From positions 1-58,217 of IMG/VR virus record IMGVR_UViG_3300035181_001345: 58,217 nucleotides of DNA; one strand, given 5' to 3'. Of the stretch, positions 2,557-55,436 are shown piece by piece (position 1 is the first letter of the stretch; each line of letters starts with the position of its first letter). Source of the stretch: a virus. A model generated the notes under the pieces. That model searched no databases. It had not been told where the DNA came from and saw only the letters and a program-made list of their open reading frames with translations. The position numbers and the translations under genes were made by a program.

Positions 2557-4158
2557 ATGGGTATATTAGACTTTTTCTCACATAGTACAAGTGAACCTCG
2601 ACTGACACAAGTTGACGCTTTAACATGGTTAGAAAAACAAACTGCGAAATATCTGATTTGTGAAATTCCTGTTGGAGGTGGTAAATCTCATGTAGCAACA
2701 ACATTTGCACAATATTTAAATGAAGGTAAAACCACACCGGGTGGTTCTTTTATTCTCACTCCTCAAAAAATTCTCCAACAACAGTACGAAAGGTCATTCG
2801 TAGATAACCCACAACGTATTATGGCAACATTATATGGAAAGGGTAATTATCACTGCATCAACAAAAACACTACCTGTGATATTGGAGGTTTAATCAAACC
2901 TCCATGTGGTTCCTGTCCTTATGAAAATGCAAAGGCACTAGCCAAAGTAACCCCTCATGTTGTAATGAATTACAAACTTGCATTGTTGATATTGGGCTTC
3001 ACAACAGTTTTTAAAAATAAACGCAAGTTAATGGTATTTGATGAATGTCATAATATAGAACAAGAATTAACTGAATTTGATGCTGTTATTATATCGAAAA
3101 AGCGGTGTGAAAAGTATAACCTACCATACAAAGAACACGATAATGTTCAACAGGCTTTTATGTGGTTAAAATCTGCTTACCTTTCAAAACTTGATATTAT
3201 TTTAAGTGACATGTTGGAAGAAGTAGATACATTTACAAATTCAAAGTCCCATACAGCTGATGAGATTAGAAAGATGCGTGAGACCAATAGTTTATTGGAA
3301 CACTCAACCACAATATCTCACTTAGTTGGAGAAATAAATGAAAAAGAGATATCAGACCAATTAGTTCTCATTAAAGATCCAACATATATGAAAATTAAAA
3401 GATTATCTGCTGCTCATAATTTTAAAAATGTTTTTGAACAACATGCCGATCGGTTTTTGTTTCTTTCATCAACGATATTAGACCATAAACAGTTCTGTAC
3501 TGATTTAGGTATTGATCCAAAAGAAGCTGCTTTCTTATCTTTAGACTCGGAATTCTCAAAAGAACACCGACCAATATTTTTTATGCCTGTAATGAAGATG
3601 AACGCTGCTTGGAAAAATCCTGAAAATAGTAAGGGTAGAACGCAAATGATTGAAACAATTGTTCAATTGTTGAATGAACATCACCACAACGAATCTGGAA
3701 TTATACACACTGCCAATTTTGCTATTGCTAAATGGTTAACTGAACAATTAAAAAACAAAATACCTCATAATATATTCCACCACAACCCTGAAAGTGGTAT
3801 TGACAGGGGGTTAATCATTGAAAGTTTTCAAAAAAGTGATAAGCCAGGGTTGTTAATATCTCCTAGTATCACCGAAGGTTTGGATCTCGTTGATGATTTA
3901 TCACGTTTTGCAATTATTGTTAAAGTTGGATTTCCGTTTTTAGGAGACGCGTGGATTAAGCGAAAGGCTGAGCTATCACAACAATGGTACCTCAGACAGA
4001 CACTCATAGATGTAATTCAAGCTAGCGGTCGGGTTGTTAGAAACAAGGAAGATTGGGGGACAGTATATATACTCGACAGTTCGTTTAGTTATCTTAAACA
4101 ACAAACTAAAAATATAACACCCAAATGGTGGCTTGACGCATACCACCAAGTGTATTAG
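2557..4158 (+). CDS. DinG/XPD-type superfamily 2 DNA helicase with Fe-S cluster cysteines
   Basis: Helicase motifs are clear: Walker A PVGGGKS (residues 38-44), Walker B DECH (162-165) and motif VI QASGRVVR (about 487-494). Between motifs I and II lie four cysteines (100, 107, 117, 120) placed as in the iron-sulfur domain of XPD, DinG and relatives. Members unwind DNA 5' to 3' during repair and replication. At 533 residues it is shorter than DinG (about 700). Some phages use DinG-like or UvsW-type helicases at branched DNA, and the neighbouring RuvC-like gene fits such a role. The ATG at 2557 follows AATAAGG. Its stop shares bases with the convergent stop at 4155. Confidence 0.85.
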   Translation: MGILDFFSHSTSEPRLTQVDALTWLEKQTAKYLICEIPVGGGKSHVATTFAQYLNEGKTTPGGSFILTPQKILQQQYERSFVDNPQRIMATLYGKGNYHCINKNTTCDIGGLIKPPCGSCPYENAKALAKVTPHVVMNYKLALLILGFTTVFKNKRKLMVFDECHNIEQELTEFDAVIISKKRCEKYNLPYKEHDNVQQAFMWLKSAYLSKLDIILSDMLEEVDTFTNSKSHTADEIRKMRETNSLLEHSTTISHLVGEINEKEISDQLVLIKDPTYMKIKRLSAAHNFKNVFEQHADRFLFLSSTILDHKQFCTDLGIDPKEAAFLSLDSEFSKEHRPIFFMPVMKMNAAWKNPENSKGRTQMIETIVQLLNEHHHNESGIIHTANFAIAKWLTEQLKNKIPHNIFHHNPESGIDRGLIIESFQKSDKPGLLISPSITEGLDLVDDLSRFAIIVKVGFPFLGDAWIKRKAELSQQWYLRQTLIDVIQASGRVVRNKEDWGTVYILDSSFSYLKQQTKNITPKWWLDAYHQVY

Positions 4159-28297: not shown

Positions 28298-29737
28298 ATG
28301 TATGTAAAATTATTACAAGAATTAACACGAATTAATGTAATCACTCAGGTAGGTAAAATTAACCCAAAATATAAAATCTTATTAAATCAAAATCCTCAAA
28401 TTAAACAAGTATTAACCGAACTTACATGTAATATAGTAAATGATTTAACTAACATACGAGAACAGTTATATTGTGTTATTAACAATATCACTTCCAAGAC
28501 AATGTGTAAACAATGTAAGACACAAACAGTTAGATTTATAAATGATGGGAAAAAACGAAATTCATATCATGATTATTGTTCCTTAAAATGTTCAAACAAT
28601 TCTGATGAGGTAAAATTCAAAAAAGAACAAACAAGTTTTGTTAATTGGGGAGTTTCTAACCCATCTAAAACAAAAATAATAAAACAAAAAAAATGTAAAA
28701 CGTCCACACTCCGATATGGAGTTAACTATCCATGGCAACAAGGAAAACAAATTGACTTACTTAATGATGCTTCATGGTTGTATCTAACACATCACACTCA
28801 ACAAAGGACACTAACAGAGATCGCCGCGATAGTTGGAGTAGATGTCAGTATTGTGTCAACATATATGAAAAGGCACAATATTGAAATTAAGAATTTTTCA
28901 AGAAGTAGTGGAGAAAAAGAAATTGCTGAATTTTTAATTGAACACAATATACAGTTTAAAACAAATACAAGATCTATTATTTCTCCATTAGAATTGGATA
29001 TATACATCCCCTCATTTAATTTAGCTATAGAATATTGTGGAGTGTATTGGCATTCTGATGTTTACAAAGATAAACAGTATCATTCAAATAAACACAATTT
29101 ATGTAAAAATCTAAATATACAACTTCTTACCATTTTTGAGGATGAGTGGTTATTTAGAAAAGACCAAGTTAAAAGAAAAATATTACACTTACTTAATTTG
29201 AGTGAAAAAACTACATATGCTAGAAAATGTTCCATCAAAACGATAACAACACATGAAAAGAGAGAATTTTTTGAAAAAAATCACATCCAGGGCAATGGTC
29301 CAGGTTCTATAAATTTAGCACTACATTATGATAATGTCATTGTTGCAGTAATGTCCTTTATTTCCAGGGATGAATGTTACTATCTTAACAGGTATGCAAC
29401 CACTCATACCATAATTGGAGGTTTTGACAAATTATTTAAACACTTTGTTAAAAACATCAAAAATTCTAACATTCCAGTAATCAGCTTCGCTGATGCTCGT
29501 TGGAGTGTTGGAAAGATGTATGAACGTTGTGGGTGGAAGTTTGTTGAAGTCATTCCACCGGATTACACATATTCACTAGATGGACTTAACAGAATACATA
29601 AATTCAATTTCAGAAGGAAGTTTTTAGAAAAACGACTCAACCATTTTGATACTAATCTAAGCGAGAAACAAAACTGTAACAATAATGGAGTTATTAGGGT
29701 GTGGGATTGTGGGAAGTATAAATTCGTGTATGAATAA
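28298..29737 (+). CDS. Homing endonuclease, zinc finger + Vsr/EDxHD nuclease + acetyltransferase-like C-terminus
   Basis: The 479-residue protein has a Cys finger (CKQCKT, then YCSLKC; residues about 68-101), short SxTLRYGV-type repeats, a helix-turn-helix word (TEIAAIVGVDVSIVSTYM), the nuclease core LELDIYIPSFNLAIEYCGVY with WHSD (about 228-252), and a C-terminal GNAT-like domain (NHIQGNGPGSI, GGFDKLFKHF, FADARWSVGKMYERCGW, PDYTYS). It lies between sheath and tube genes, with its own terminator-promoter boundary. It is closely related to the HEGs at 33732 and 53739. The ATG has a CGGAG site. Confidence 0.82.
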   Translation: MYVKLLQELTRINVITQVGKINPKYKILLNQNPQIKQVLTELTCNIVNDLTNIREQLYCVINNITSKTMCKQCKTQTVRFINDGKKRNSYHDYCSLKCSNNSDEVKFKKEQTSFVNWGVSNPSKTKIIKQKKCKTSTLRYGVNYPWQQGKQIDLLNDASWLYLTHHTQQRTLTEIAAIVGVDVSIVSTYMKRHNIEIKNFSRSSGEKEIAEFLIEHNIQFKTNTRSIISPLELDIYIPSFNLAIEYCGVYWHSDVYKDKQYHSNKHNLCKNLNIQLLTIFEDEWLFRKDQVKRKILHLLNLSEKTTYARKCSIKTITTHEKREFFEKNHIQGNGPGSINLALHYDNVIVAVMSFISRDECYYLNRYATTHTIIGGFDKLFKHFVKNIKNSNIPVISFADARWSVGKMYERCGWKFVEVIPPDYTYSLDGLNRIHKFNFRRKFLEKRLNHFDTNLSEKQNCNNNGVIRVWDCGKYKFVYE

Positions 29738-30521: not shown

Positions 30522-31916
30522 ATGGCAACAACAGATCAAACATCTAAAACTCAACTTTTTATGACCCCATATGCTACAGACATATCGGATTCGTTTACTC
30601 CCAAATCGAAATTTCTTTTTGCGGTAGCATTCTATATAAACGAACCATTTCAACAGTATTTTGGAGGTGTTAAGTCCATTGGATCATTGGTTTACAAATT
30701 CGAACGCCCTAAAATAGAAATAGAGCATGAGGATGTAAATTTGTATAACTTTAAAACTCAAGTTCCAAAACAAGTTAAATACAATCCTGTAAGCATGTCT
30801 GTTCATGATGATAAGGGATCCAATTCTATGGGAACATTGGTTCATTATGTTAGAAGTTTAAGTCCGATATTTAATATTAGTGGTTCAGCTGGAACCACTC
30901 CCAATTATGAAAATGTTTCTTCAGGCCTCGATTTTTCAATTGGATCAGCACCAAGTGACTCAAATTTCTCTTCTGCTAGTTTTGGTACTCTACAACAGAG
31001 TCCATTTAGTGGTTTTTTTCTGAATGAGAATGGAAGCCCTATTGAAAACATGACATCAATATTCAGCAAAATTCAAGTATTCCACTTATTTGATGCTAAT
31101 CAGTATATGGATGTATATAGTTTTTTCAATCCTAAAATTACGAATATTGCCTTTGATGAACTTAATATGACTGAAAGTGCTACAAACTCAATCACATTTG
31201 AGTTTGTATATGATGGAATGTACATTGAACCACACAAATCAACTACAGATTCGAGTGAGCTTACAGCTCTTAGTGAGATATGTCCAGGGATGGTATATAA
31301 TCTCGGATTTCCAGTACAAGATTTAAGTACTAATAACTCAGCTGGTAATAATACAAGTAGTACTCAACAAGCAGTAACCTCTTCAACACTATTAAATAAC
31401 TCTACTAGTTTAAATACGTTTGTATCTAATAACGTGGCCGAAACAAAAAAGATGTCTGATGCTGTCATATCATCTACTCAAGCTGGTGTTGGGTTATCAG
31501 GTATTGGATCCTCCACAAACAATACAACAATTATGGCTGCTGCTGTTAGTAAAACCATGAATTCACAAACATTACCTGTTCAAGCTGGTGTTGGGTTATC
31601 AGGTATTGGATCCTCCACAAACAATACAACAAGTATGGCTGCTGTTGTTAGTAAAACCATGAATTCACAAACATCATCTGCTAATTTAAGCAAAATTGCT
31701 AGTACTATGTCGATTACGTCTATAGTAAAAACTGCAACCTCAAACAATAAATCTTATTCACCAATACACAACATAAATGTTAATTCACTACTACAACCCA
31801 CCAATATCGAAAACGTTATTAAAAACACGGCAGTGAAGATAGTTAATTCAGAAATTAAATCAGTTGTTAACAGTGTGGTTAAAAGTACGTCAGGAATGTT
31901 TAAAACTAAATTATGA
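30522..31916 (+). CDS. Tail-tube-fold protein, gp19/gp54 paralogue with Ser/Thr/Asn-rich tail
   Basis: The first 270 residues resemble a tail tube fold: KSKFLFAVAFYI, VYKFERPKIEIEHEDVNLYN, VKYNPVSMSVHDD and, near residue 227, ITFEFVYDGMYIE. Compared with the gp19 next door it has a longer loop. T4 uses gp54 as a tube-fold cap on the baseplate, so a baseplate-tube junction role is likely. The remaining 190 residues are rich in Ser, Thr and Asn and contain a 34-residue tandem repeat (QAGVGLSGIGSSTNN). Its stop overlaps the gp4 start as ATGA. It could instead be a second tube or a terminator protein. Confidence 0.65.
   Translation: MATTDQTSKTQLFMTPYATDISDSFTPKSKFLFAVAFYINEPFQQYFGGVKSIGSLVYKFERPKIEIEHEDVNLYNFKTQVPKQVKYNPVSMSVHDDKGSNSMGTLVHYVRSLSPIFNISGSAGTTPNYENVSSGLDFSIGSAPSDSNFSSASFGTLQQSPFSGFFLNENGSPIENMTSIFSKIQVFHLFDANQYMDVYSFFNPKITNIAFDELNMTESATNSITFEFVYDGMYIEPHKSTTDSSELTALSEICPGMVYNLGFPVQDLSTNNSAGNNTSSTQQAVTSSTLLNNSTSLNTFVSNNVAETKKMSDAVISSTQAGVGLSGIGSSTNNTTIMAAAVSKTMNSQTLPVQAGVGLSGIGSSTNNTTSMAAVVSKTMNSQTSSANLSKIASTMSITSIVKTATSNNKSYSPIHNINVNSLLQPTNIENVIKNTAVKIVNSEIKSVVNSVVKSTSGMFKTKL
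31479..31673 (+). repeat. Tandem direct repeat, copies 31479-31571 and 31581-31673
   Basis: Two 93-base copies with only a few differences, at a 102-base period (34 codons), each starting CAAGCTGGTGTTGGGTTATC. The near identity indicates a recent duplication. Confidence 0.88.
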
Positions 31917-32362
31917 AAGATCCAGCTCCTAAAAAGCAACGAACATATCTACAGGGGTTATATAAACCACAACATCCTGAAAAATATATTGGAGATGTTA
32001 ATAAGATTACGTACAGATCTTCTTGGGAATTAAAATTCAATAAATTCTTAGATAATAATCCAAATATTACTTATTGGGGTTCTGAAGTTATAGCGATTCC
32101 TTATATTAAATGTACTGATCAGAAGGTTCATAATTACTTTCCTGATTATTTTATTGTATTTAAAGATAAAAATGGTCAAGAGCATAAAGAGTTAATTGAA
32201 ATTAAGCCGGCAAGTCAAACTAAACTTACAAAACGATCAAACCTTTACGAACAAATAACATATGCTATTAATGTGGCAAAATGGGAAAGTGCAAAACGAT
32301 GGTGTGATCATAATGGAGTAGTGTTTCGTATCCTCACTGAGAAAGAACTCTTCACAAATTAA
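31913..32362 (+). CDS. gp4: Head completion protein (T4 gp4-like, TnsA-type endonuclease fold)
   Basis: At 149 residues it equals T4 gp4 (150). Typical words are YKPQHPEKYIGDVNKITYRS, SWELKFNKFLDNNP, the acidic FPDYFIV (Asp of a PD-(D/E)XK core) and LIEIKP (Glu-x-Lys). The fold is that of TnsA/restriction-type nucleases. In T4 gp4 is needed to finish heads after packaging, perhaps by trimming DNA. It starts at the ATGA overlap with the preceding gene and lies just before the terminase genes. Confidence 0.88.
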   Translation: MKDPAPKKQRTYLQGLYKPQHPEKYIGDVNKITYRSSWELKFNKFLDNNPNITYWGSEVIAIPYIKCTDQKVHNYFPDYFIVFKDKNGQEHKELIEIKPASQTKLTKRSNLYEQITYAINVAKWESAKRWCDHNGVVFRILTEKELFTN

Positions 32363-32364
32363 GG

Positions 32365-32372
32365 TATAAATA
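32365..32372 (+). promoter_or_regulatory. Late promoter TATAAATA for gp16
   Basis: Exact TATAAATA, 28 bases before ATG 32400. A CGAAACA/TGTTTTG stem leaves the AAGAGG ribosome site in an open loop. Confidence 0.7.
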
Positions 32373-32399
32373 CGAAACATTTGCAAGAGGTGTTTTGTA

Positions 32400-32822
32400 A
32401 TGAAAACAATCATTGAAACGAAAACAGTTGAACATCCCCTAGAAGCTATATTTGGAATTGAACGAGGTACTACTGAAATTACAGTAGAGCAAGTTCAAAC
32501 AGATATGGTTGTTATCGATTCTTACGATGAGAAGGATAGGGAAATTGAAGGTCAGTTTCAAGAAGTATATGATGCTGCTATGACGTCTTTTGCAGACCAA
32601 GCTGGATTGTTAACACAGTCAGACCCAAAGTATAGTGCACGTAATATGGAAGTAGCTAACGCTTTTTTGAATACAGCTTTGTCAGCGGCAAAGGAGAAGG
32701 CTGCACTAAAAATTGCAAAAGAGAAAAATTCAAAAGAGTCAGGACCTAAAACAGTCAATAATAATTTAATAATGGACAGAAATGAGTTATTAAAAATGTT
32801 GAAAGACTCAACTGTCAAATGA
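32400..32822 (+). CDS. gp16: Terminase small subunit (T4 gp16-like)
   Basis: A 140-residue helical protein just upstream of the large terminase, as in T4 (gp16, 164 residues). The central part, QEVYDAAMTSFADQAG followed by PKYSARNMEVANAFLNTAL, matches the oligomerisation helices of the gp16 family. It forms a ring that recognises DNA and stimulates the gp17 ATPase. A good late promoter precedes it. Confidence 0.85.
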   Translation: MKTIIETKTVEHPLEAIFGIERGTTEITVEQVQTDMVVIDSYDEKDREIEGQFQEVYDAAMTSFADQAGLLTQSDPKYSARNMEVANAFLNTALSAAKEKAALKIAKEKNSKESGPKTVNNNLIMDRNELLKMLKDSTVK

Positions 32823-32874
32823 TACCCCTTTATTTTACACAATAAATAGAACAAAATGATGGGGTTTGGGGTAT
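32822..32874 (+). promoter_or_regulatory. Hairpin pairing across the terL ribosome site, late promoter in its loop
   Basis: ATACCCC (32822-32828) pairs perfectly with GGGGTAT (32868-32874), which covers the ribosome site and the first two bases of the terL ATG. The loop contains AATAAATA at 32841-32848. A transcript beginning about six bases after this box lacks the left arm and leaves the start open. Confidence 0.6.
32841..32848 (+). promoter_or_regulatory. Late promoter AATAAATA for terL
   Basis: One base from consensus, 25 bases before ATG 32873, in the loop of the hairpin above. Confidence 0.55.
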
Positions 32875-33772
32875 GGCTAGAAAAAATCCGTATATAAAAA
32901 GAGCTCATGAACTTGTTGAATATTCTAACGATCAAGTTCATGAATTATTGAGATGTTCTGTTGACCCTGTATATTTCATTAAACATTATGTAAAAATTCA
33001 ACATCCTGTGAAGGGTATCGTTCCATTCAATCTATATCCATATCAAGAACAGTTAATCAATAGTTATAATGGAAATCGACTCAATATAGTATTATCAGCA
33101 AGACAGACAGGTAAATCTGTAACTTCAGCAGCATATCTTTTGTGGTTTGCTATTTTTCATGAAGATAAAACTATATTGATAGTGTCAAATAAAAACAGTA
33201 ATGCCATGGAAATGATATCAAGAGCTAGAACAGCTTACGAAAATCTACCCCAGTGGTTAAAGCCGGGAGTTGCTGATGATGAATGGAATAAACACAGTAT
33301 AGGTTTTGATAATGGGAGCCGTATTATATCTCAAGCAACCACAGAAGATTCTGGTCGTGGTATGTCAATCTCATTATTGTATTGCGATGAGTTTGCTTTC
33401 GTACCTCCAAACATTCAAGAATTGTTCTGGACTTCTATTTCACCAACACTGTCAACAGGTGGTGCATGTATCATAACATCAACCCCAAATGGGGACTCAA
33501 ACCTCTTTGCACAACTATGGAGAGGTGCAGAGTTGGACATAAATGGATTTGTTTCAACTTGGATTAAGTGGAATGAACCACCTGGACGAGACGAGGAATT
33601 CAAAAGAACAGAAACAGCGAAAATTGGTGAGCTCAAATGGTTGCAAGAATACGAGTGTTGCAGTATAAATACGATTATAGAAATACAGGATGTGCAAGGA
33701 AATACAAAAACTTGTACTATTGGAGAATTATATGAATTGTTGTCAACATCAACCCACACTGGAACTAGCTAA
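32873..33772 (+). CDS. gp17: Terminase large subunit, N-terminal half fused to split intein N (T4 gp17-like)
   Basis: Residues 1-261 are the ATPase half of a T4-like terminase: Walker A SARQTGKS (75-82), Walker B LLYCDEF with Asp172-Glu173, and the coupling motif ITSTPNG (about 201-207). At residue 262 the terminase sequence breaks after QEYE and an intein starts with Cys-Cys-Ser-Ile-Asn-Thr (C1, then Thr6 of block A). The intein part is only 38 residues and ends at TGA/TAG in 33770-33772. The protein must be joined to the product of 35260-36432 by protein trans-splicing to make a full terminase of about 536 residues (T4 gp17 has 610). The packaging motor translocates DNA into the head. Confidence 0.92.
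   Translation: MARKNPYIKRAHELVEYSNDQVHELLRCSVDPVYFIKHYVKIQHPVKGIVPFNLYPYQEQLINSYNGNRLNIVLSARQTGKSVTSAAYLLWFAIFHEDKTILIVSNKNSNAMEMISRARTAYENLPQWLKPGVADDEWNKHSIGFDNGSRIISQATTEDSGRGMSISLLYCDEFAFVPPNIQELFWTSISPTLSTGGACIITSTPNGDSNLFAQLWRGAELDINGFVSTWIKWNEPPGRDEEFKRTETAKIGELKWLQEYECCSINTIIEIQDVQGNTKTCTIGELYELLSTSTHTGTS
33656..33769 (+). other. Split intein, N fragment (38 aa), AceL-TerL type
   Basis: It starts at the Cys codon 33656-33658. CCSINTIIEIQD fits intein block A (Cys1, Asn/Asp5, Thr6), and KTCTIGELYELL resembles the end of the short N fragment of the AceL-TerL intein (known length 25 residues). No block B is present, so the break falls between blocks A and B, an atypical place. Confidence 0.88.
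33664..33671 (+). promoter_or_regulatory. Late promoter TATAAATA inside the intein N coding region
   Basis: Exact TATAAATA within the intein codons, 61 bases before the likely HEG start at 33732. It could drive the HEG and the terL C half. Confidence 0.5.
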
Positions 33773-35282
33773 CACAAATGTTAAACCTGAAGATTTAGTC
33801 GGAAAGTATGTAGTTTCCCCTATAGACAATAACACATATTGTCGTAAGAATGGTCAATTTTTACGACACCTCCAGTCACATAACGTTACATCATATCAAG
33901 AACTATTTGATAGATTATTCCCATCTATGATAAAAATTTGTTCATGTGGAACACTTTGTTCATTTGATCCACATGAAATGAGGTATGGACGCACATGTAA
34001 ATCCCGTAAATGTATAGGAAACACTATATCCAGTTCTAAAGAACTTAGAACCAAATCTGATTTAGATAATTTTAGAGCCAAATTTAAAAAGACGATGAGT
34101 TCTAAAAGTAAAGAAGAACTTGACCTAATCACAACAAAGAGAAAATTAACAAATATCACAAAATATGGTGTTGAACATCCGTGGAGTTCACCAATAATAA
34201 GAAACAAAATAAAGGTAACGGTAGATAAGAAATATCACTGCAACAATTTCAGTACTTCGTTAATTTCACCACAGTCAAAAATGTTATTGGATGACAAAGA
34301 GTGGTTATACGATCAACATTACAATTTACAAAAACCTTTATATGTAATTGCTCAAGAATTGGACGTAGGAGATCGAACAGTTGGAGTTCATCTTAAAAAA
34401 CATGGATTTTCAACTAAATTGTTCCAACATTCAAATTGGGAGATGGAGCTTTCAGATTTTCTAAATGAACACAATATCGTTTTTACAAAAAATAATAGAG
34501 ATGTTATCAAGCCAAGAGAACTTGATTTCTTTTTGCCCGACGCTAATGTAGCAATCGAACTGTGTGGGTTGTATTGGCATAGTGATAAACATGAACGGAT
34601 AGACAATAATTACCATTACCAAAAATATATAAGATGTAAGGAATTAGGAATTCAATTACTTACTATTTTTGAGGATGAATGGAAAAACAAAGAGCTAATT
34701 TTTAACAAAATTCTACATTTAACAAACAAGTCAACTCAACAAGTCGTGTATGCAAGAAATACCACTATAGACAACAATATTTTGATGGCCGACAGAAAAC
34801 GTTTTTTTGAATTAAACCACGTTCAGGGAGATGGTAAGGGAAGCATTGTAATCGGATTACGAAATAACACAAATGAACTGGTTGCCGCCAGCATATTTTC
34901 AAAGCATGAAAACCATGAGTATAAACTTGTTCGATTTGCCACAAGTCAACGAGTTATCGGTGGATTCTCCAAGATAATAAACAATTTTGAAACCAATTAT
35001 TCAGATTATCGCATAATAACAACATTTTCAGATAATAGATGGAGCACAGGTCAGGTTTACAAGAGTAATGGGTTCGATGTAATAACAGTACTCAAACCAG
35101 ATTACCAATATGTCCAACAAGGTAAACGTGTTCACAAATTTAACTTTAGACATAAAAGTTTGAAAAAACGTTTAAAACACTACGATCCATTGGTGTCAGA
35201 AAGTCAAAATTGTGTAAATAATGGAATATATAGAGTGTGGGATTGTGGGAAAATTGGTTATGGAAAATTTAGAGTTCATTAA
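33732..35282 (+). CDS. Homing endonuclease inside the split terL gene (zinc finger + Vsr/EDxHD + acetyltransferase-like)
   Basis: The 516-residue protein has Cys pairs near the N-terminus (CSCGTLC, then CKSRKC), the NITKYGVEHPW-type short repeat, a helix-turn-helix word (YVIAQELDVGDRTVGVHL), the nuclease core ELDFFLPDANVAIELCGLYW followed by HSD, and a GNAT-like C-terminus (NHVQGDGKGSI, FSDNRWSTGQVYKSNGF, PDYQYV). The frame opens at 33690, but ATG 33732 has a GGAGA site six bases upstream. It overlaps the terL N half by 41 bases and the C half by 23. It presumably cleaves terL alleles lacking the insertion, spreading the split gene arrangement. Confidence 0.85.
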   Translation: MNCCQHQPTLELANTNVKPEDLVGKYVVSPIDNNTYCRKNGQFLRHLQSHNVTSYQELFDRLFPSMIKICSCGTLCSFDPHEMRYGRTCKSRKCIGNTISSSKELRTKSDLDNFRAKFKKTMSSKSKEELDLITTKRKLTNITKYGVEHPWSSPIIRNKIKVTVDKKYHCNNFSTSLISPQSKMLLDDKEWLYDQHYNLQKPLYVIAQELDVGDRTVGVHLKKHGFSTKLFQHSNWEMELSDFLNEHNIVFTKNNRDVIKPRELDFFLPDANVAIELCGLYWHSDKHERIDNNYHYQKYIRCKELGIQLLTIFEDEWKNKELIFNKILHLTNKSTQQVVYARNTTIDNNILMADRKRFFELNHVQGDGKGSIVIGLRNNTNELVAASIFSKHENHEYKLVRFATSQRVIGGFSKIINNFETNYSDYRIITTFSDNRWSTGQVYKSNGFDVITVLKPDYQYVQQGKRVHKFNFRHKSLKKRLKHYDPLVSESQNCVNNGIYRVWDCGKIGYGKFRVH

Positions 35283-35604
35283 AAATAATATAGGGATAAA
35301 AATTAAATCCGAACATGGTTTTGTTGAATTTGATGGAATTCGAAAACAACAAAATAAGAAAACCTATCGGGTTAAGTTTACAAATGAAACCTACATTGAT
35401 GTTACTCATAATCATCGTTTTTTTGAATATAACACATCAAAAGAAGTATTCACACAAGATCTTTATCCAGGAATAGAGCTTGTTGGTGACAATCACAGTC
35501 GGGTGGAAGTTGAAAGTGTGAATTTCAATAAGGTTGAAGATGTTTATGATATAATTAATTCCCAAACTCACACATATATGACAAACGGGGTATTATCACA
35601 TAAT
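35260..35604 (+). other. Split intein, C fragment (115 aa)
   Basis: Block B appears as VTHNHRFF (Thr-x2-His), block F as VEDVYDII, and block G as the end NGVLSHN before the +1 Cys of the terminase. The AceL-TerL C fragment has 104 residues with the same layout. All catalytic residues (block B Thr and His, penultimate His, last Asn, +1 Cys) are present. Confidence 0.88.
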
Positions 35605-36432
35605 TGTCATTTCCTATCGTCAGATGCTTTGTTGATTAGTTCTCACGTATTAAACAATATTGTCACCAAAAACTTACCAGAACCAGATCAATATGGAATT
35701 CATTGGTTTGACACGCCAACTAAAGGTCAAAACTTTTTAATTGGCGTTGATCCATCTACAGGGACTGGTAGTGATATGAGTTCAATAGAAATATTTGAGT
35801 TTCCATCGTTAATTCAATATGGTGAATTTAGATCAAATACCACTTCTTCATCTGATTTATACAAAACTCTGAAATATGCTATAAGGTCAATTGAACGATT
35901 AGGAGCATTAGCTTACTTCTCTGTTGAGAATAATGGTGTTGGGGAAGGAATTATTGCTCTTTATCAGAATGACGATAATCCACCCGAAGCACATTTCGTA
36001 TCAGAGGTCGGTAAGGGGCGTTTGGGAATGACTACAACCGGGAAATCGAAGGCTAAAGCATGTAATAATCTAAAGGAGTTGATCACTAAAGGAAAAATGG
36101 GAGTGAAATCAAAACCTTTACTTGCAGAACTAAAGACATATGTGCGAAAGATGGGAACTTATGCAGCACAATATGGTTCAACTGATGATTCCATCTCAGC
36201 AACATTAATCATTGTTCGTATAATTGAGGAGATTTCAATGTTTGAAGATAAAGCATTCGAATTGTTATATCAAATGGAAGAGATTGAAGATGGATATGAC
36301 CAAGAGCAGTATGATGAAACTGAGCAGGGTACACCAATGGTTTATACTCAGGGGTATGGACATGTGAAGCCTAGAGGAACTTTTACTGACCCAAATGATC
36401 CGAACAGCTTTGATCCGTTTGGGGGCATGTAA
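35260..36432 (+). CDS. gp17: Terminase large subunit, C-terminal half preceded by split intein C (T4 gp17-like)
   Basis: Residues 1-115 are the intein C fragment, and residues 116-390 are the nuclease half of terminase, beginning at Cys codon 35605 (CHFLSSDALLIS). The RNase H-like nuclease acids appear in LIGVDPSTGTGSD, SVENNGVGEG and DDSISATLI. This half cuts the concatemer and holds DNA during packaging. The frame is open from 35221, but ATG 35260 follows GGGAAAATT and gives an intein C start (MENLEFIKNNIGI) like that of AceL-TerL. Without trans-splicing neither half would be functional, so the intein should be active. Confidence 0.9.
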   Translation: MENLEFIKNNIGIKIKSEHGFVEFDGIRKQQNKKTYRVKFTNETYIDVTHNHRFFEYNTSKEVFTQDLYPGIELVGDNHSRVEVESVNFNKVEDVYDIINSQTHTYMTNGVLSHNCHFLSSDALLISSHVLNNIVTKNLPEPDQYGIHWFDTPTKGQNFLIGVDPSTGTGSDMSSIEIFEFPSLIQYGEFRSNTTSSSDLYKTLKYAIRSIERLGALAYFSVENNGVGEGIIALYQNDDNPPEAHFVSEVGKGRLGMTTTGKSKAKACNNLKELITKGKMGVKSKPLLAELKTYVRKMGTYAAQYGSTDDSISATLIIVRIIEEISMFEDKAFELLYQMEEIEDGYDQEQYDETEQGTPMVYTQGYGHVKPRGTFTDPNDPNSFDPFGGM

Positions 36433-36577
36433 TGAATTAGGGTAAAGAGAACTGTTAAATACTAAAAAATAGTTTTAAACGGTTTTAAAATAGTTTAAAT
36501 ATTATATAGTTATTACATGCGGGTGGGACAATGTAATTATACAACATAAAAACAAATCAGTCAACAGTTATTTTTGA

Positions 36578-36585
36578 TATAAATA
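36578..36585 (+). promoter_or_regulatory. Late promoter TATAAATA
   Basis: Exact TATAAATA, 26 bases before ATG 36604. The 171-base gap from 36433 otherwise holds three short GTTTTAAA-type repeats (about 36472-36499) and no gene. Confidence 0.7.
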
Positions 36586-36603
36586 CAATAAAGAGGTTTT
36601 CAT

Positions 36604-37116
36604 ATGACAACGTTACTAGAACTTACGCTTAAAAATTTACAGAAGTCGTCGGAAGATGCATTTCCCGATACATCCAAAAGGCAAAAGGTAGTAAGCTCTA
36701 TAAACATTTCAAACGTGAAACTGCTGCCATATACTAAGTCTAATGTGCTTAAAGTTGATGCTGTTGCTAATAGTGGAGGACATAGATATAACTGTTCTAT
36801 TGAGTTTGAAAATGTTTTTTATGAGACACAACCATCGAACAGATTAGTTTCATTTGATGGTTCCGATGGAACCAGTTACAACATTCACCCCATCAATTCA
36901 GGTGTAAATGACGTTAAAGTGAAGTGTAATTGTATGGATTTTTATTACAGATTTGCTCAAACCAATTATCAAAAAGATTCATTGGATGGAAATCCACCTC
37001 CTCCGTACGTAAAGAAAACAAACAGACCCGATGTTAATCCTTCTCACAAACCTGGAATGTGTAAACATTTGTTCAAGTTGATAGATCAACTTGAAGTCAT
37101 GAGAATCGTGATTTAA
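36604..37116 (+). CDS. SWIM-type zinc finger protein, 170 aa
   Basis: The protein has Cys108-x-Cys110 (VKCNCMDF) and Cys153-x-His155 (GMCKHLFKL), separated by 42 residues. This CxC...CxH pattern, with the fixed HxP-C-K-H context, is that of a SWIM zinc finger, a DNA- or protein-binding module. The upstream 100 residues look beta-rich. The family is familiar from T4-like genomes as an uncharacterised protein near structural genes. It has its own late promoter, so a virion or packaging-related role is possible. Its stop shares bases with the convergent gene. Confidence 0.65.
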   Translation: MTTLLELTLKNLQKSSEDAFPDTSKRQKVVSSINISNVKLLPYTKSNVLKVDAVANSGGHRYNCSIEFENVFYETQPSNRLVSFDGSDGTSYNIHPINSGVNDVKVKCNCMDFYYRFAQTNYQKDSLDGNPPPPYVKKTNRPDVNPSHKPGMCKHLFKLIDQLEVMRIVI

Positions 37117-37709
37117 TTTTTTGTTGAAGTGAGAGTTTTTAGAGAAATGGATCTTGTTTTCTTCTTTACGGGGTGATCCATAGACTCTAAAATTTGTCGT
37201 ACTTTAACTTCCTTCTCATTAACTACACTTTTCTTCTTCTTTTCAATCTTTCTTGGTGTTTTTATTATTGGGGTAATATGTTCAGTTACTGTTTCTTCTT
37301 CCTCAACAGCATCATGGTTTTGCATATAATTTAAAATTGATTTAGGAGAAGCTTTCTCTTCTTCATATTCTTCACCTTCCTCATTATTTTCATCTTTTGA
37401 GTTTGATTTGGGTGACACAGAAACTGATACGTCATCAACAGCAATAACAGTACCTTTCAGAGGAGTAAACAATTGACCGTTTATTATAACTTCAACGCTA
37501 CAATCATGAGTTCCTCTATCGAGAAAAGAAACAGGGGGAATAGTAGTTATGAAAGTAGATTGAGAATCTCGCTTACAATCAAACATTAAATTAAACCCTT
37601 CACAATGAATTATAAGCCTGGAACGGGCATCTTCTGTAGAAGCTCCTTCAACTCTTAAATCAAATTCCACTGTTGTTTGTTTTGTACGATTGACGGTAAT
37701 AGTGTCCAT
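37113..37709 (-). CDS. Probable Ig-like / beta-sandwich structural protein with charged tail, 198 aa
   Basis: Residues 1-100 look like an immunoglobulin-type beta domain (TTVEFDLRVEG, RLIIHCEGFNLMFDC, STFITTIPPVSF, GTHDCSVEVIING). Residues 100-198 are very acidic, then basic, and probably disordered. The composition is like decoration or core-related proteins of T4-like heads, but I cannot assign a named family. A GATAAATA box lies upstream on the minus strand, so it is late. It belongs to a three-gene minus-strand group (38833 to 37113). Confidence 0.6.
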   Translation of the reverse strand: MDTITVNRTKQTTVEFDLRVEGASTEDARSRLIIHCEGFNLMFDCKRDSQSTFITTIPPVSFLDRGTHDCSVEVIINGQLFTPLKGTVIAVDDVSVSVSPKSNSKDENNEEGEEYEEEKASPKSILNYMQNHDAVEEEETVTEHITPIIKTPRKIEKKKKSVVNEKEVKVRQILESMDHPVKKKTRSISLKTLTSTKN

Positions 37710-40969: not shown

Positions 40970-43900
40970 ATGTCAAATCAGATTCTTTTAAAACGAACGT
41001 CAACCCCAGGAAAAATTCCTGCGATCACAGATATTGCTATCGGTGAAGTAGGGTTAAACACATATGATGGTAAGATGTATATGCACATCAATAATGGCAC
41101 AGACAGTGTCATTCAGGTTGGTTTGTACACATACTCTGGTGATGTTTCTGGTTCAGTTAGTGGAGCCGCTGTTTCTCTTACCTTAGCAACAGTTAACTCA
41201 AACGTAGGAACATTTGGAGATAGTACACACGTAGGATCGTTTACAGTAAATGGTAAAGGTTTAGTAACAGCAGCATCAGCTACAGCGATTGCTTTTCCAG
41301 TAACGTCTGTATTTGGTAGAACAGGAGCTGTTACATTAACATCTTCAGATGTCAGCACAGCTCTTGGATATACTCCATTGTCTGGAAACCAAACAATTAC
41401 TCTTTCTGGAGACGTGTCTGGGTCAGGTACTACAGCAATAACAGCAACTCTTGCAACAATTACCGACAGTGGTTCAGGTTCTTTCTTAAAAATTACTAGA
41501 AACGGCAAAGGTCTTGTTACTGGAACAACTGCAGTAACCGCTAGTGATATTACAACAGCGTTAGCATATACACCAGTTAACAAAGCCGGCGATACGATGA
41601 CTGGATTGTTAGTTCTTTCAGGAGATCCATCAGCAGCTTTAGGTGCTGCCACAAAACAATATGTGGATAATGCCATTGCAGGTCTTTCTTGGAAAGAAGC
41701 TGTTATGTGTGCAACTACTGCAAACATAACTCTTTCAGGATTACAGTCGATTGATGGGTATACTACTATTGCTGGTGATCGTGTTTTAGTTAAAAATCAA
41801 ACAACAGCATCTCAAAATGGTATTTACATTGCAGGTTCTGGTGCATGGACAAGATCTACAGATGCTGATTTAGGAACAGAGATTCAAGGTTTGACGGTTT
41901 ATGTTGATCAAGGTTCCACATTAGCAAATACAGGGTGGACACAAACAACAACTGGTGCAATTACAGTTGGGACAACAAGTTTAGCATTTGCTCAATTTAC
42001 CGGTTCTGGCACATATTCTGCAGGAACAGGCTTAACATTATCTGGAAACACTTTCAGTATTACAAATACCGCAGTTACCGCCGGTTCTGGTTATAATACA
42101 TTTACAGTTAACAGTCAAGGTCAAGTCACAGCAGCTTCTACAACCGCTTATTTGACTGGAAACCAGAATATCACATTGTCTGGTGATGCTACTGGTTCAG
42201 GAACAACAGCAATTACATTAACACTTGCAAATAGTGGAGTCACTGCAGGAACATACAACAATAGTGTAACAGCAATTACACCATATACTGTAGATGCTAA
42301 AGGACGTGTAACAGCAACTGGTTCAGCAGTAACAATCACACCAGCATGGAGTTCAATTACAAGTAAACCCACAACAGTTGCAGGTTATGGTATTACTGAT
42401 ATTAACTCAGTTTACGCTCCAACATTGACAGGTACTGGTGCTTCTGGAACGTGGAGTATTAATATTTCTGGGACAGCTTCAAATTCAACCAATCTAGGTG
42501 GTACACCTGCAGCCTCGTATGCATTATTAGCATCTCCAACATTTACAGGAACTCCATCTGCTCCAACAGCAGCTGTTAGTACTAACTCAACACAAATTGC
42601 AACTACTGCGTTTGTTCTTGGTCAAGCCGGTACAGCTAATCCAATTATGGATGGAACAGTTGCAGTCGGTACTTCATATTTGTATGCAAGACAAGATCAT
42701 ATTCACCCAACTGATACCTCTCGTGCACCTGCTGCAGGTAGTAGTTCTATAGTTACATTGGGAACTGTTACATCTGGTGTCTGGAATGGAACAACAGTTG
42801 CAACAGGTTATGGTGGAACTGGACTTTCTTCAATTGGAGCAGCCAATCAGATTCTTGGAGTCAATTCAGGTGCAACTGGACTTGAATATAAAACAGTAAC
42901 AGCTGGAACAGCAATTAACGTTTCTAATGGAACAGGAACAGTTACAATCAACAATACTGGTGTTACGTCAAATGTAGCGGGTTCTGGTATTAGCGTTTCC
43001 GGGGCAACAGGGGCAGTTACGATTGCTAACACTGGTGTATTATCAGCAATTGCAGGTTCTGGTATTAGCGTTTCAGGAGCAACAGGCAACATTACGTTTG
43101 GAAATACTGGTGTATTGTCCTTTAATACACGTACTGGTGCAGTAACACTCACATCTAGTGATGTTACAACAGCGTTAGCATATACACCAGTTAATAAAGC
43201 CGGTGACACTATGACCGGATTGTTGGTTCTTTCAGGAGATCCAGTAAATGTTCTTGGTGCAGCTACTAAACAGTATGTTGATAATGCTGTCGCTGGATTG
43301 TCGTGGAAAGAAGCAGTTCGTGTTGCAACAACTGCAAATATAACACTTTCTGGTACACAAACAATTGATGGCGTTGCTGTTGTTGCTGGGGACCGTGTGT
43401 TGGTTAAGAATCAAACAACAGGTTCACAGAATGGCATATATATTGTTGCCACAGGTGCTTGGGGTCGTGCAACAGATGCAACAACTTCAACACAAGTCGC
43501 TGGTATGGCTGTGTATGTTGATCAAGGTACTACCTTAGCAAGTACAGGTTGGACAGAAAACGTATCAGGCGTAATCACTGTTGGAACCACAAACATTACG
43601 TTCTCCCAGTTTACCGGAGCTAATACGTATACAGCTGGAACAGGTTTAACATTATCTGGAAATGCGTTTAGTATTACTAACACCGCAGTTACCGCTGGTT
43701 CTGGTTACAACACATTCACAGTAAATGCTCAAGGTCAGGTAACTGCTGCATCTACGACTGCTTATTTGACTGGAAACCAAAATATCACATTCACTGGTGA
43801 TGCAACTGGTTCTGGTACCACTTCAGTTGTTCTGACACTTGCGAATAGTGGAGTAGTTGCAGGAACGTATAACACAGGTGGTGCAAATCATTACCCAATC

Positions 43901-51740: not shown

Positions 51741-52661
51741 GTGCAACAAAAAACGGAAAAGGTGTTTATCGAACAAGCCCACATAATTCATGGTGGGTTG
51801 TTCGATTATTCGTTAGTTAACTATAAAAATTCTCATATACCAGTTACTATTATTTGTAGAAAACATGGACCTTTTTTACAAAAGCCATATCAACATTTAG
51901 CTGGATATGGTTGCAAATACTGTAAGGCTGATAATCAACGGTTATCTACACAAACATTTATTGATAGATGCAATTTATTATATGATAACAAATATGATTA
52001 TTCTTTAGTTGAGTATATTCACAATAAACAAAAAGTTCAGATAATATGTCCACAACATGGGCACTTTCTAAGAAAACCCAATGACCATTTATATGGTGTA
52101 GGGTGTCCTAATTGTAAAACTTATAACAAAAGTGGAAAGGACATATTTATTCAAAAAGCGATTAACACACATGGTGATATGTATGATTATTCTTTAGTAG
52201 AGTATATCAATAGTAAAACTCCTGTTAATATAATATGTAAAAAACATGGAGTATTCAGTCAAGTTCCTGATACTCATATAAATGCTAGGTGTGGATGCAG
52301 AAAATGCAGCAGAGTAGCATCCAAAAGTGAACAAGAGTGGTTAGACTATGTTGGAGTCCCTGACAAACCAGAGACAAGACAAGTACATAAGCAATTGGGA
52401 AAGAAACATGTGTTTTTTGATGGGTTTATTCCAGAAACTAACACAGTGTATGAATTTTATGGGGATATGTGGCATGGAAACTTAGATGTGTTAAATCCAG
52501 CAGATGTTCCGTTTTCGTTTTTATCAAAAACTGCTGAACAACTATGGAATGAGACTCAGCTGAGAGAACAACTTATTAAACAGTATGGATACAATTTAGT
52601 CACCATTTGGGGTAGTGAATGGTCTAAAATAAAACAGGAGATGAAAAATGGTAAAGTTTAA
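51741..52661 (+). CDS. Homing endonuclease, zinc-ribbon repeats + Vsr nuclease, GTG start
   Basis: The 306-residue protein has three zinc ribbons of about 60 residues (CRKHG...GCKYC, CPQHG...GCPNC, CKKHG...CGCRKC), each preceded by a YDYSLVEY-type segment, then a Vsr core (FFDGFIPETNTVYEFYGDMW followed by HGN, about 228-250). It starts with GTG at 51741, just 15 bases after gp32, with no strong ribosome site, so coupling to gp32 is likely. Its last 14 bases overlap the uvsX start, and its 3' end supplies the AGGAG site of uvsX. It is placed between two essential recombination genes. Confidence 0.8.
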   Translation: MQQKTEKVFIEQAHIIHGGLFDYSLVNYKNSHIPVTIICRKHGPFLQKPYQHLAGYGCKYCKADNQRLSTQTFIDRCNLLYDNKYDYSLVEYIHNKQKVQIICPQHGHFLRKPNDHLYGVGCPNCKTYNKSGKDIFIQKAINTHGDMYDYSLVEYINSKTPVNIICKKHGVFSQVPDTHINARCGCRKCSRVASKSEQEWLDYVGVPDKPETRQVHKQLGKKHVFFDGFIPETNTVYEFYGDMWHGNLDVLNPADVPFSFLSKTAEQLWNETQLREQLIKQYGYNLVTIWGSEWSKIKQEMKNGKV

Positions 52662-53739
52662 AACAGAGTTTGTTAAAGGTTTTGTTAAAGATATGGATAA
52701 AGTAGGAATTGATATAGGTGCTGCTGAGCCACCTCGATACTGGTTCTCCACTGGAAATTACGCTTTAAATAAAACTATTTCGGGTAGTTTTTTGAAGGGA
52801 ATTCCCCAAGGTCGTATAGTTTGTTTCGCTGGCCCATCAGGCTCAGGAAAAACGTTTATTACCTGTAATTGTATAAGAGAAGCACAAAAAGAGGGAATAT
52901 TTGCAGTCGTTGGAGACAGTGAACACGCACTCGATGCAGTGTTTGCTTCCAAGATTGGTGTAGACGTTAGTGAAGATATGTTTATTCATGCAGATTTGGA
53001 TACTATTCCACAAGCTCAAAAATATGTGTCGTCGTTTCTTAAATCATATGAGAAAGAGTATGGAATCGGAGATCCTAATGCACCAAAAGTAGTGATTGTT
53101 ATAGATAGTTTAGATATGCTCATGACCGAAACTGAAGAAGAAAACTTTGATAAAGGTGTTCTCAAGGGCGACCAAGGACAACGAAGCAAACAGATGAAGT
53201 CTGTCTTGAGACAATTCGTGCATGCCATTAAACATCAAAATATTAGTATGATTGTAACACACCAAGTATATAAGAATCAAGATGTGATGAACGGTGAGGG
53301 AGTATGGATTGTAAATGATGCAGTAAAATATTCTCTGTCCCAAATTACACTACTGACAAAGTTAAAGTTACGAGGAGACACTCCTAGTGATGTCCAAGGC
53401 ATACGTATGAAATGTGAAGGGTATAAAACAAGATTTTGTAGACCATTTATGAGTGTTACTATTGAGGTCCCATATGAAACTGGTATGGATTCATATAATG
53501 GCTTGTTAGAGGCTGCTGTTGGGTTGGGAGTAGTAGAACAGAACGGGTCTTGGTATAAATTCGGAGAAGAAAAATTTCAATCCAAAAATTTCAATCAATT
53601 TGCACCTGATATTTTGGCACAATGTGAAACATTAACAGATGCATTTCTGCAAGTGAAACTTGGAGACAATGAAGTTGTGGATATGTCATCTGGAGAATCT
53701 TCTAAGAAAAAACGCCTTAAAAAGGCTGAAGAAGAGTAA
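52648..53739 (+). CDS. uvsX: UvsX RecA-like recombinase
   Basis: The 363-residue protein has the RecA core: Walker A GPSGSGKT (62-69), the Walker B region VVIVIDSLDML (about 148-158), and the DNA-binding L1/L2 region with VTHQVYKN. T4 UvsX has 391 residues. It drives strand exchange and recombination-dependent replication. Gp32 upstream and UvsY downstream are its usual partners. The AGGAG site and ATG are inside the end of the HEG; its TAA overlaps the next HEG start as TAATG. Confidence 0.95.
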   Translation: MVKFKTEFVKGFVKDMDKVGIDIGAAEPPRYWFSTGNYALNKTISGSFLKGIPQGRIVCFAGPSGSGKTFITCNCIREAQKEGIFAVVGDSEHALDAVFASKIGVDVSEDMFIHADLDTIPQAQKYVSSFLKSYEKEYGIGDPNAPKVVIVIDSLDMLMTETEEENFDKGVLKGDQGQRSKQMKSVLRQFVHAIKHQNISMIVTHQVYKNQDVMNGEGVWIVNDAVKYSLSQITLLTKLKLRGDTPSDVQGIRMKCEGYKTRFCRPFMSVTIEVPYETGMDSYNGLLEAAVGLGVVEQNGSWYKFGEEKFQSKNFNQFAPDILAQCETLTDAFLQVKLGDNEVVDMSSGESSKKKRLKKAEEE

Positions 53740-55436
53740 TGTCACGAGAAGAGTTGATCGCCCAATTAAAACTCTTCAACATTATATTGAAGTCTGGTAG
53801 AGTAAATTCATCTGGACGTAAAATACTTGAAAACCTCCCAGATTTACGACAGGCGATATACTCATTTACACAAGGTTCACTTGCGACCTCTTTATCAGAA
53901 CGACTGTATTGCATAATGCATAATATCACCAAACACCCAGTGTGTTTGGTGTGTGGTAATAATATAGTTAAATTCAATAATACAACTGGATACAGACAAT
54001 ACTGTAGTACGTATTGTAGTAACAACTCACCTGATAAAAAACAACAAATATCAGACACAAATAACACGAGGTATGGGGGTCACCCAAGAACAACTGATAC
54101 AGTTAAGGCCAAGTATAAGAAAACGTGTTTAATTAAGTATGGAGTAGAGTATCCAACCCAAAATGAAATAGTAAAAGCCAAAGCCCGTGAAACAAACATG
54201 AACTTATACGGAACAGAATATCATCAACAGTCAGATAGTGGCAAATATCAACGCCAATCAACTAATCAAAGATTATACGGAGTTGATTTTCCCCTTCAAA
54301 GTAAAGCTGTACAACAAGTAGCACATGATACAATTATGTATAAGTATGGTGTTACATCTACGTCAAAGCTGGATTATGTAAAACATAAACAACAGGAACA
54401 TAGATATGACAATTTTTCTAGTGATGTATTGGAAAAATTAACAAATAAAGAATGGTTGATAAATCAACATCACACACTTAGAAAACCACTTCAACAAATT
54501 GCTACAGAATTAGGTTTAAAGGATGAAAAATTAATATCAACAAGAATGTTAAAATTTTCTATTGATGTGCGCTATTATGCTCATAGTTATCAAGAGAGTC
54601 AAATAACAGATTTTTTAGCTGAACATAATATCAAATTTGTGACTGGTAATAGGCAAATTATTGCACCACACGAACTTGATATATTTCTTCCGGACTATAA
54701 TGTCGCAATTGAATATAACGGGTTATATTGGCACAGTGACAAATTTAAAACACCAAACTTTCATAAAGAAAAATTGGATCGGTGTACCGAACACAAGATT
54801 AGGTTATTGACAATATTTTCAGATGAGTGGATTTATCAAACAGATATAATAAAACAAAAAATTCTTCATATTATTCAAGAAGATCATCAGAACTCAATAT
54901 TTGCTAGAAAAACCATTATTGTGCCACTTGAATATTACCAAAAACGTGAGTTTTTTGAAAAATATCACATTCAGGGAGATGGTCCTGGTTCGATTAGTTA
55001 TGGATTAAAATATAAAGAGAGCATCGTAGCAGCAATAACATTCATCAAACAGTCCAATGGCACATTCGTGTTAAATCGATATGCAACATCAACAATCGTT
55101 CCTGGTGGGTTTTCTAAATTAATTTCTCATTTTTGTAACAATCATACATGGAAACAAATAATTACATTTGCAGATTGTCGATGGAGTGTTGGAGAGTTAT
55201 ACGTTAATAACGGGTTTGTATTTAATAAATTATTAAAACCAGATTATTATTATATTGAAAACAATAAACGAGTTCATAAATTTAATTACAGAAGGAAGTT
55301 TTTATCTAAAAAACTTCAGAATTTTGATCCACTACTGAGTGAAAGAGTTAATTGTGATATTAATGGTTGTATTCGGATATGGGATTGTGGTAAAATACGA
55401 TTCATAAAATCAAATTTAATGGAGACCATAACATGA
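53739..55436 (+). CDS. Homing endonuclease, zinc finger + Vsr/EDxHD nuclease + acetyltransferase-like C-terminus
   Basis: The longest finger-type HEG here (565 residues). It has CLVCGN then YCSTYC (residues about 67-91), five short KYG(V/T)-type repeats (about 108-207), a helix-turn-helix-like word (QQIATELGLKDEKLISTRML), the nuclease core LDIFLPDYNVAIEYNGLYW followed by HSD, and the GNAT-like domain (YHIQGDGPGSI, GGFSKLISHF, FADCRWSVGELYVNNGF, PDYYYI). It starts at ATG 53739, one base overlapping the uvsX stop, and ends with an ATGA overlap on the MazG-like gene. It is flanked by uvsX, another HEG lying on that gene's other side. Confidence 0.83.
   Translation: MSREELIAQLKLFNIILKSGRVNSSGRKILENLPDLRQAIYSFTQGSLATSLSERLYCIMHNITKHPVCLVCGNNIVKFNNTTGYRQYCSTYCSNNSPDKKQQISDTNNTRYGGHPRTTDTVKAKYKKTCLIKYGVEYPTQNEIVKAKARETNMNLYGTEYHQQSDSGKYQRQSTNQRLYGVDFPLQSKAVQQVAHDTIMYKYGVTSTSKLDYVKHKQQEHRYDNFSSDVLEKLTNKEWLINQHHTLRKPLQQIATELGLKDEKLISTRMLKFSIDVRYYAHSYQESQITDFLAEHNIKFVTGNRQIIAPHELDIFLPDYNVAIEYNGLYWHSDKFKTPNFHKEKLDRCTEHKIRLLTIFSDEWIYQTDIIKQKILHIIQEDHQNSIFARKTIIVPLEYYQKREFFEKYHIQGDGPGSISYGLKYKESIVAAITFIKQSNGTFVLNRYATSTIVPGGFSKLISHFCNNHTWKQIITFADCRWSVGELYVNNGFVFNKLLKPDYYYIENNKRVHKFNYRRKFLSKKLQNFDPLLSERVNCDINGCIRIWDCGKIRFIKSNLMETIT

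What the first reader, a model, noticed from the sequence alone, without database searches (positions are those of the whole stretch)
32873..36432. Terminase large subunit split by an AceL-TerL-type atypically split intein with an HEG between the halves
TerL stops at residue 261 and continues in an intein N fragment of only 38 residues (block A). The intein C fragment has 115 residues with block B, F and G motifs, ending SHN followed by Cys. The break falls between blocks A and B, not at the usual site between B and F. The known AceL-TerL intein (Antarctic Ace Lake metagenome) has the same gene, position type and fragment sizes (25 and 104). A Vsr-type HEG sits between the halves, the 'fractured gene' arrangement. 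All catalytic residues are present, so trans-splicing should be needed for packaging.
Basis: partly seen in the sequence, partly recalled or inferred. Interest (0 to 1): 0.95.

Follow-up and report, generated by a model that had tools for sequence, protein, structure and literature searches.

The report
Split-intein terminase with nested homing gene
A phage's DNA-packaging motor gene is broken in two by a mobile nuclease gene, and the two protein halves should be stitched together by a split intein; this is a new example of a known rare arrangement, and its relatives show the nuclease being swapped and lost while the break stays.

Summary
TerL is encoded in two ORFs: 261 TerL residues plus a 38-residue intein N-half, and a 115-residue intein C-half plus 275 TerL residues. 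A 516-residue homing endonuclease gene (HEG) overlaps both (41 and 23 nt). In 74 of 80 related TerL loci the two parts meet with no extra or missing codon. Profiles of both intein halves hit the two chains of Cat, the consensus of AceL/GOS-TerL, best of all PDB sequences; the predicted C-half has the Hint fold. It is a new member of the atypically split TerL inteins in a 'fractured gene', not a new kind; Aeromonas phage PX29 already carries such an annotation. The 'Vsr-type' HEG is EDxHD-type plus an unannotated GNAT-fold C-terminal domain. Added: of 31 distinct same-site loci, 28 are split and 3 contiguous; the HEG differs in nuclease type and is free, fused, overprinted, a remnant or lost; closely related TerLs carry different HEGs, and one HEG at 99% identity sits in diverged TerLs. 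Splicing and cleavage are inferred, not shown.

The parts
32873..33655 (+). TerL N-part (ATPase domain, 261 aa)
   Evidence: T4 gp17 E 1.2e-39; PHROG terminase large subunit 1.1e-57 for the whole ORF
33656..33772 (+). Intein N-half, 38 aa, block A, Cys1 at 33656-33658; stop 33770-33772
   Evidence: family profile hits CatN E 3.5e-5
33722..33725 (+). GGAG, likely Shine-Dalgarno of the HEG, inside the IntN codons for the GELYE motif
   Evidence: candidate HEG ATG at the same IntN codon in window, L091 and L093, one codon later in L092
33732..35282 (+). Homing endonuclease gene, 516 aa
   Evidence: PHROG 3339 homing endonuclease 4.6e-97; orthologues at 49-52% identity in L091-L093
33795..34040 (+). 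HEG N-terminal Cys-containing module (about residues 22-103); its confirmed relatives all lie at this TerL site
   Evidence: absent from two PHROG-3339 HEGs of the same window
34434..34721 (+). HEG EDxHD/Vsr-like nuclease domain (about residues 235-330)
   Evidence: profile to 3r3p E 2.9e-10; D265, E276, H283, H295, K298, E316 invariant in 19 HEGs
34755..35279 (+). HEG C-terminal GNAT-fold domain (residues 342-516)
   Evidence: AF2 model pLDDT 87.8, pTM 0.56; Foldseek best phage Mu Mom 5.1e-7; VIA Z up to 14.3, 131 aligned, rmsd 2.6
35260..35604 (+). Intein C-half, 115 aa, blocks B, F, G, ending SHN
   Evidence: family profile hits CatC E 9.4e-26; AF2 pLDDT 95.0, Hint fold
35605..36432 (+). 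TerL C-part (RNase H-like nuclease domain, 275 aa), first residue Cys+1
   Evidence: 3c6a E 8.2e-13; joins the N-part without extra or missing codon in 74 of 80 relatives

Best explanation
A mobile element in a T4-like phage terminase gene. Three overlapping cistrons make (1) TerL ATPase domain + IntN, (2) a homing endonuclease, (3) IntC + TerL nuclease domain. The intein halves find each other; Cys262 (intein Cys1) and Cys+1 act as nucleophiles and the last Asn of IntC cyclises, so the halves are trans-spliced into a 536-residue TerL that packages DNA. The HEG cuts TerL alleles and spreads the cassette by repair copying. In relatives the HEG is replaced or lost while the split persists. Shown here: gene structure, conserved splicing residues, clean junction, homology, predicted Hint fold of IntC, and transfer footprints in relatives. 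Inferred: splicing, cutting, need for splicing in packaging.
For: Clean junction in 74 of 80 TerL relatives, 2 interrupted, 4 not readable. CatN and CatC are the best PDB sequence hits of the two intein-half profiles. H52 and N115 invariant in 25 of 25 IntC; C-terminal Asn and Cys+1 in 31 of 31 same-site loci, residue 1 Cys in 29 and Ser in 2. Hint fold. The closest TerL relative, L136, is split with no HEG, a stop codon and a 132-bp gap, so frameshifting cannot give a single chain there. Transfer footprint L185/L187: HEG 99.1%, IntC 91.4%, against the last 600 bases of TerL-N 76.7% and TerL-C after its first 60 bases 64.2% nucleotide identity. HEG swap L152/L153: TerL-N 92.4% and TerL-C 89.6% identical, but a GIY-YIG HEG against a DUF559/MTES_1575-type one, with the BLAST match ending at the first intein base.
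Against: No splicing product seen. The window's own IntC alone matches CatC only at E 0.014, and its ORF matches Pfam Intein_splicing at 18.7 bits, below the cut-off of 35.8. 7 of 31 same-site loci, not the window, lack the penultimate His, so some may splice poorly. No transfer footprint was found for the window's own cassette: its nearest HEGs are 49-52% identical.
Confidence: 0.9

Rival explanations
1. The halves act as a two-subunit terminase without splicing; the intein is a dead remnant.
For: The break lies near gp17 residue 353 by the alignment, close to the boundary of the ATPase and nuclease domains (about residue 360, recalled), which could fold on their own.
Against: Splicing residues kept in the window and its orthologues; both halves conserved across 31 loci.
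Confidence: 0.05
2. A self-splicing RNA intron, as in the TerL gene of phage ICP1 (PMC10448857, passages read).
For: Introns with neighbouring HEGs do occur in phage terL.
Against: No intron family in 31500-37500 at E<=1 (three matches, all miRNA or snoRNA below threshold); the inserted sequence codes for intein motifs on both sides; sister locus L136 has only 132 bp between the ORFs.
Confidence: 0.02
3. Pseudogene or assembly frameshift in a normal contiguous intein.
For: One open frame runs through the intein in 3 of 31 same-site loci.
Against: Second record identical over 13.2 kb, perhaps of the same sample; three orthologues with IntN, HEG and IntC in separate ORFs; candidate HEG start inside IntN in all four.
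Confidence: 0.02

Closest known systems
AceL-TerL / GOS-TerL inteins and their consensus Cat (PDB 6dsl)
   Same: Gene, A|B split, small IntN and large IntC; family-profile matches to CatN and CatC; sizes 38/115 against 37/115 for GOS-TerL
   Different: Cys1/Cys+1 as AceL, unlike GOS-TerL (Ser1); the AceL and GOS loci themselves were not at hand, so their insertion site and neighbouring HEG were not compared
Fractured genes (Dassa et al. 2009; paper not held, recalled)
   Same: Host gene broken by a split intein with a HEG between the halves
   Different: Break between blocks A and B rather than B and F (the latter recalled)
Aeromonas phage PX29 genes 17A/17B
   Same: Split TerL, annotated by the depositors as holding N-intein and C-intein
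   Different: GIY-YIG endonuclease fused to IntC instead of a free EDxHD gene
I-Bth0305I (EDxHD homing endonuclease, 3r3p)
   Same: Catalytic domain by sequence profile; family name from PMC3943268 (passages)
   Different: Here with a TerL-site N-terminal module and a GNAT-fold C-terminal domain

Membership tests
Atypically split TerL intein (AceL/GOS/Cat) | Two intein halves on separate ORFs flanking TerL halves | tested here: met
Atypically split TerL intein (AceL/GOS/Cat) | Split between blocks A and B, small IntN (25-37 residues in the known ones) | tested here: met
   38/115 against the review table; relatives' IntN frames are 29-45 codons to the stop where no HEG is fused
Atypically split TerL intein (AceL/GOS/Cat) | Sequence kinship of both halves with Cat | tested here: met
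   family profiles E 9.4e-26 and 3.5e-5, best of all PDB sequences; the window IntC alone only E 0.014
Atypically split TerL intein (AceL/GOS/Cat) | Same TerL insertion site as AceL/GOS | not tested
   those loci were not in the data used
Atypically split TerL intein (AceL/GOS/Cat) | Trans-splicing activity | not testable with these tools
   needs protein
Fractured gene | HEG gene between the intein halves | tested here: met
   definition recalled
EDxHD/Vsr-like homing endonuclease | EDxHD catalytic domain | tested here: met
   3r3p E 2.9e-10 with the profile A6; phmmer with the single sequence found nothing at E<=1
EDxHD/Vsr-like homing endonuclease | Cuts the intein-free target | not testable with these tools
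   needs an assay
GNAT superfamily (C-terminal domain of the HEG) | GNAT fold | tested here: met
   predicted model; Foldseek and VIA
GNAT superfamily (C-terminal domain of the HEG) | Acyl-CoA use or DNA-modifying activity | not testable with these tools
   fold only
Group I/II intron | Ribozyme core in the insert | tested here: not met
   no intron match at E<=1

The most novel reading that the evidence does not exclude
The TerL fracture is a fixed docking site for interchangeable endonucleases. A TerL-site-specific N-terminal module of the HEG recognises this one target and is recombined with different nuclease domains: in 13 distinct loci it precedes EDxHD-type (5), HNH/endonuclease VII-like (2) or DUF7487-type (5) domains, or stands alone as a remnant (1), always at this TerL site in the data held. 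The break is a scar of HEG invasion that outlives the HEG. In the EDxHD form the HEG also carries a Mom-like GNAT-fold domain that might modify DNA and so protect the element's own copy.
Probability: 0.45. Interest if true: 0.7.

Novelty: new member of a known kind. Interest (0 to 1): 0.5.

Why it matters
It adds a well-anchored member to the short list of atypically split TerL inteins, which are used as protein-labelling tools (PMC11766414), and its relatives lay out possible steps of one process: contiguous intein, HEG in another frame, free or fused HEG, HEG swap, HEG loss with the split retained. That makes the origin of split inteins testable on natural intermediates. The unannotated GNAT-fold domain in this phage HEG family is a lead of its own.

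Tried and rejected
Alignment A1 of nine IntC sequences was too diverse for a collection scan. A group I/II intron was sought and not found. phmmer with the single HEG sequence found no PDB relative; only the profile did. No nuclease fold is among the listed structural matches of the HEG model, which the GNAT domain fills, so the nuclease call rests on sequence; VIA lists only the top 50 entries and Mom, first by Foldseek, is not among them.

The N-terminal module gave no match in the phage collection, and none of 36 pattern matches in the GTDB genomes was confirmed. Its specificity to TerL is open to bias: the query was built from TerL-site members, 28 of 44 pattern matches in viral contigs were not confirmed, and a weaker relative (E 4.8e-4) lies next to a HEG outside TerL (L124); PHROG 3339 also matches the window HEG from residue 66 on, so only the part before that is clearly distinctive. 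The Pfam label DUF7487 is not clean either: in the EDxHD HEGs its middle part matches a helical stretch, while in L171 and L185-L189 the match runs to the profile's end. L170 and L183 have no Pfam match and are called HNH/endonuclease VII-like from PHROG 1035 (1.1e-4 and 1.8e-5). L087 scores below Pfam's GIY-YIG cut-off, L151 has only a weak DUF559 match (0.073), and the HEG of L171 is broken into two ORFs.

A frameshift joining IntN, HEG and IntC was rejected because L136 has no HEG and a stop. The census drops L141 and L147, whose upstream side is not held, and collapses duplicate loci. The tree is a quick one on the C-part alone, with long branches. Dassa 2009 and Bachmann 2015 are not held. 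Searches touching TerL split inteins with HEGs or a GNAT domain in such HEGs: in the listings and in the passages I opened of seven papers I saw no account of HEG exchange at this TerL site or of a GNAT domain in these HEGs; most listed papers were not opened, and the library lacks most subscription papers.

Full report
What is there. The window is a virus record of 58,217 bases. ORF 32873-33772 holds 261 TerL residues and a 38-residue intein N-half; the ORF ending at 36432 holds, from the ATG at 35260, a 115-residue intein C-half and 275 TerL residues; a 516-residue HEG runs from 33732 to 35282. A second, 122-kb record is identical over the surrounding 13.2 kb and matches both window ends at 100%, one base short over the first 3000; it may stem from the same sample.

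TerL is intact across the break. The N-part matches T4 gp17 (E 1.2e-39), the C-part the nuclease domain of a gp17-type terminase (8.2e-13). In the best 80 of at least 599 confirmed TerL-N loci, 74 have the two parts joined with no extra or missing codon, 2 are interrupted (L005, L076, both with an HNH-type HEG) and 4 end before the C-part.

The intein. Block A starts at residue 262 (Cys1), IntC ends SHN before Cys+1. A profile of 25 same-site IntC sequences finds CatC first in the PDB (E 9.4e-26, next gp41-1 at 1.7e-17); a profile of 11 IntN sequences finds CatN first (3.5e-5, next 0.047). With the window sequence alone CatC scores only E 0.014. The AF2 model of IntC (pLDDT 95.0) matches inteins and other Hint domains in all 46 Foldseek rows at E<=0.001.

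The HEG. Its candidate start codon lies in the IntN codons for the GELYE motif, at the same place in the window, L091 and L093 and one codon later in L092. A profile of 19 such HEGs has one PDB match at E<=0.1, the I-Bth0305I catalytic domain (2.9e-10). Residues 342-516 are predicted as a GNAT fold: Foldseek best hit phage Mu Mom (5.1e-7), VIA Z up to 14.3 over 131 residues. Activity is unknown.

Relatives. Three loci carry the whole cassette (L091-L093, HEG 49-52% identical) with IntN, HEG and IntC in separate ORFs. The nearest TerL relatives, L136 to L138 (near-identical to each other), are split with no HEG; on a quick tree of the C-part L136 is the window's sister (SH-aLRT 96). Of 31 distinct same-site loci with both sides held, 28 are split: 20 with a free HEG, 4 fused to IntN (L084, L086, L146, L148), 2 fused to IntC (L082, L083), 1 remnant (L142), 1 none (L136). 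In three the intein lies in one open frame: L145 and L154 without HEG, L152 with a GIY-YIG HEG in another frame of the same stretch (L141 and L147 dropped as cut off). By Pfam, GIY-YIG passes its cut-off in L082 and L085 (SegE type) and in L084, L086, L146, L148 and L152, HNH in L005, L076 and L150, DUF559 in L083 and L153; the other types are weaker calls, listed under Tried and rejected.

Mobility. L185 and L187 share a HEG at 99.1% and IntC at 91.4%, but the last 600 bases of TerL-N at 76.7%, the first 69 bases of IntN at 40.6% and TerL-C after its first 60 bases at 64.2%. The left edge lies inside IntN, so the recipient probably already had an intein. L152 and L153 are the mirror case: TerL-N 92.4% and TerL-C 89.6% identical, different HEGs, the match breaking at the first intein base and resuming inside IntC. 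These show transfer and exchange in the family, not in the window's own copy.

The module. A scan for the HEG N-terminal module confirmed 16 of 44 pattern matches; 16 of 16 are flanked on at least one side by a TerL intein half, 13 distinct: EDxHD-type 5 (window, L091, L092, L093, L155), HNH/endonuclease VII-like 2 (L170, L183), DUF7487-type 5 (L171, L185, L186, L187, L189), remnant 1 (L142). Two further PHROG-3339 HEGs in the window (28298-29737, 53739-55436) share the rest of the protein at 41-43% identity but not the module. This fits a targeting module with exchangeable nucleases, but the search was seeded from TerL members.

What is known. The review PMC11766414 (passages) describes AceL-, GOS- and Cat-TerL; PX29 has been annotated with N- and C-intein by its depositors. 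PMC10448857 (passages) reports terL intron splicing in ICP1 and HEGs near terminases; PMC6892783 (passages) a split PolB intein with a HEG in phage MIJ3. Hence a new member of a known kind; the added interest lies in the comparative picture.

Noticed in passing
L134 3828-7013, 6998-8155, 8097-9056 (122-kb record identical to the window where compared; outside the window): DNA polymerase B of the same phage carries, by eye, one contiguous intein and a second one split after block B, with another HEG between the halves: a second fractured gene.
   Followed up: partly
window 28298-29737, 53739-55436, 51741-52661: Three more free-standing HEGs: two of PHROG 3339 like the TerL one (between tail sheath and tail tube; after UvsX) and one other between the SSB and UvsX genes.
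   Followed up: partly
L091 1047-6764: TerL in three pieces: a second split intein at the Walker A site with a HEG on the opposite strand, plus the same-site cassette.
   Followed up: partly
L142 1741-6146, L183 2065-7044, L186 2700-7071, L185 691-2595: Further TerL inteins at the Walker A and/or Walker B sites besides this site; L183 shows signs of three intein sites (sites named by eye).
   Followed up: partly
L152 2069-4717 with 2904-3530: One open TerL-intein frame runs through a GIY-YIG HEG encoded in another frame: a possible intermediate between contiguous and split.
   Followed up: partly
window 31478-31674: Pair of 95-bp repeats, 97.9% identical, in a tail-tube-like ORF; also window 41541-42260 resembles 43155-43874 at 76%.
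   Followed up: no
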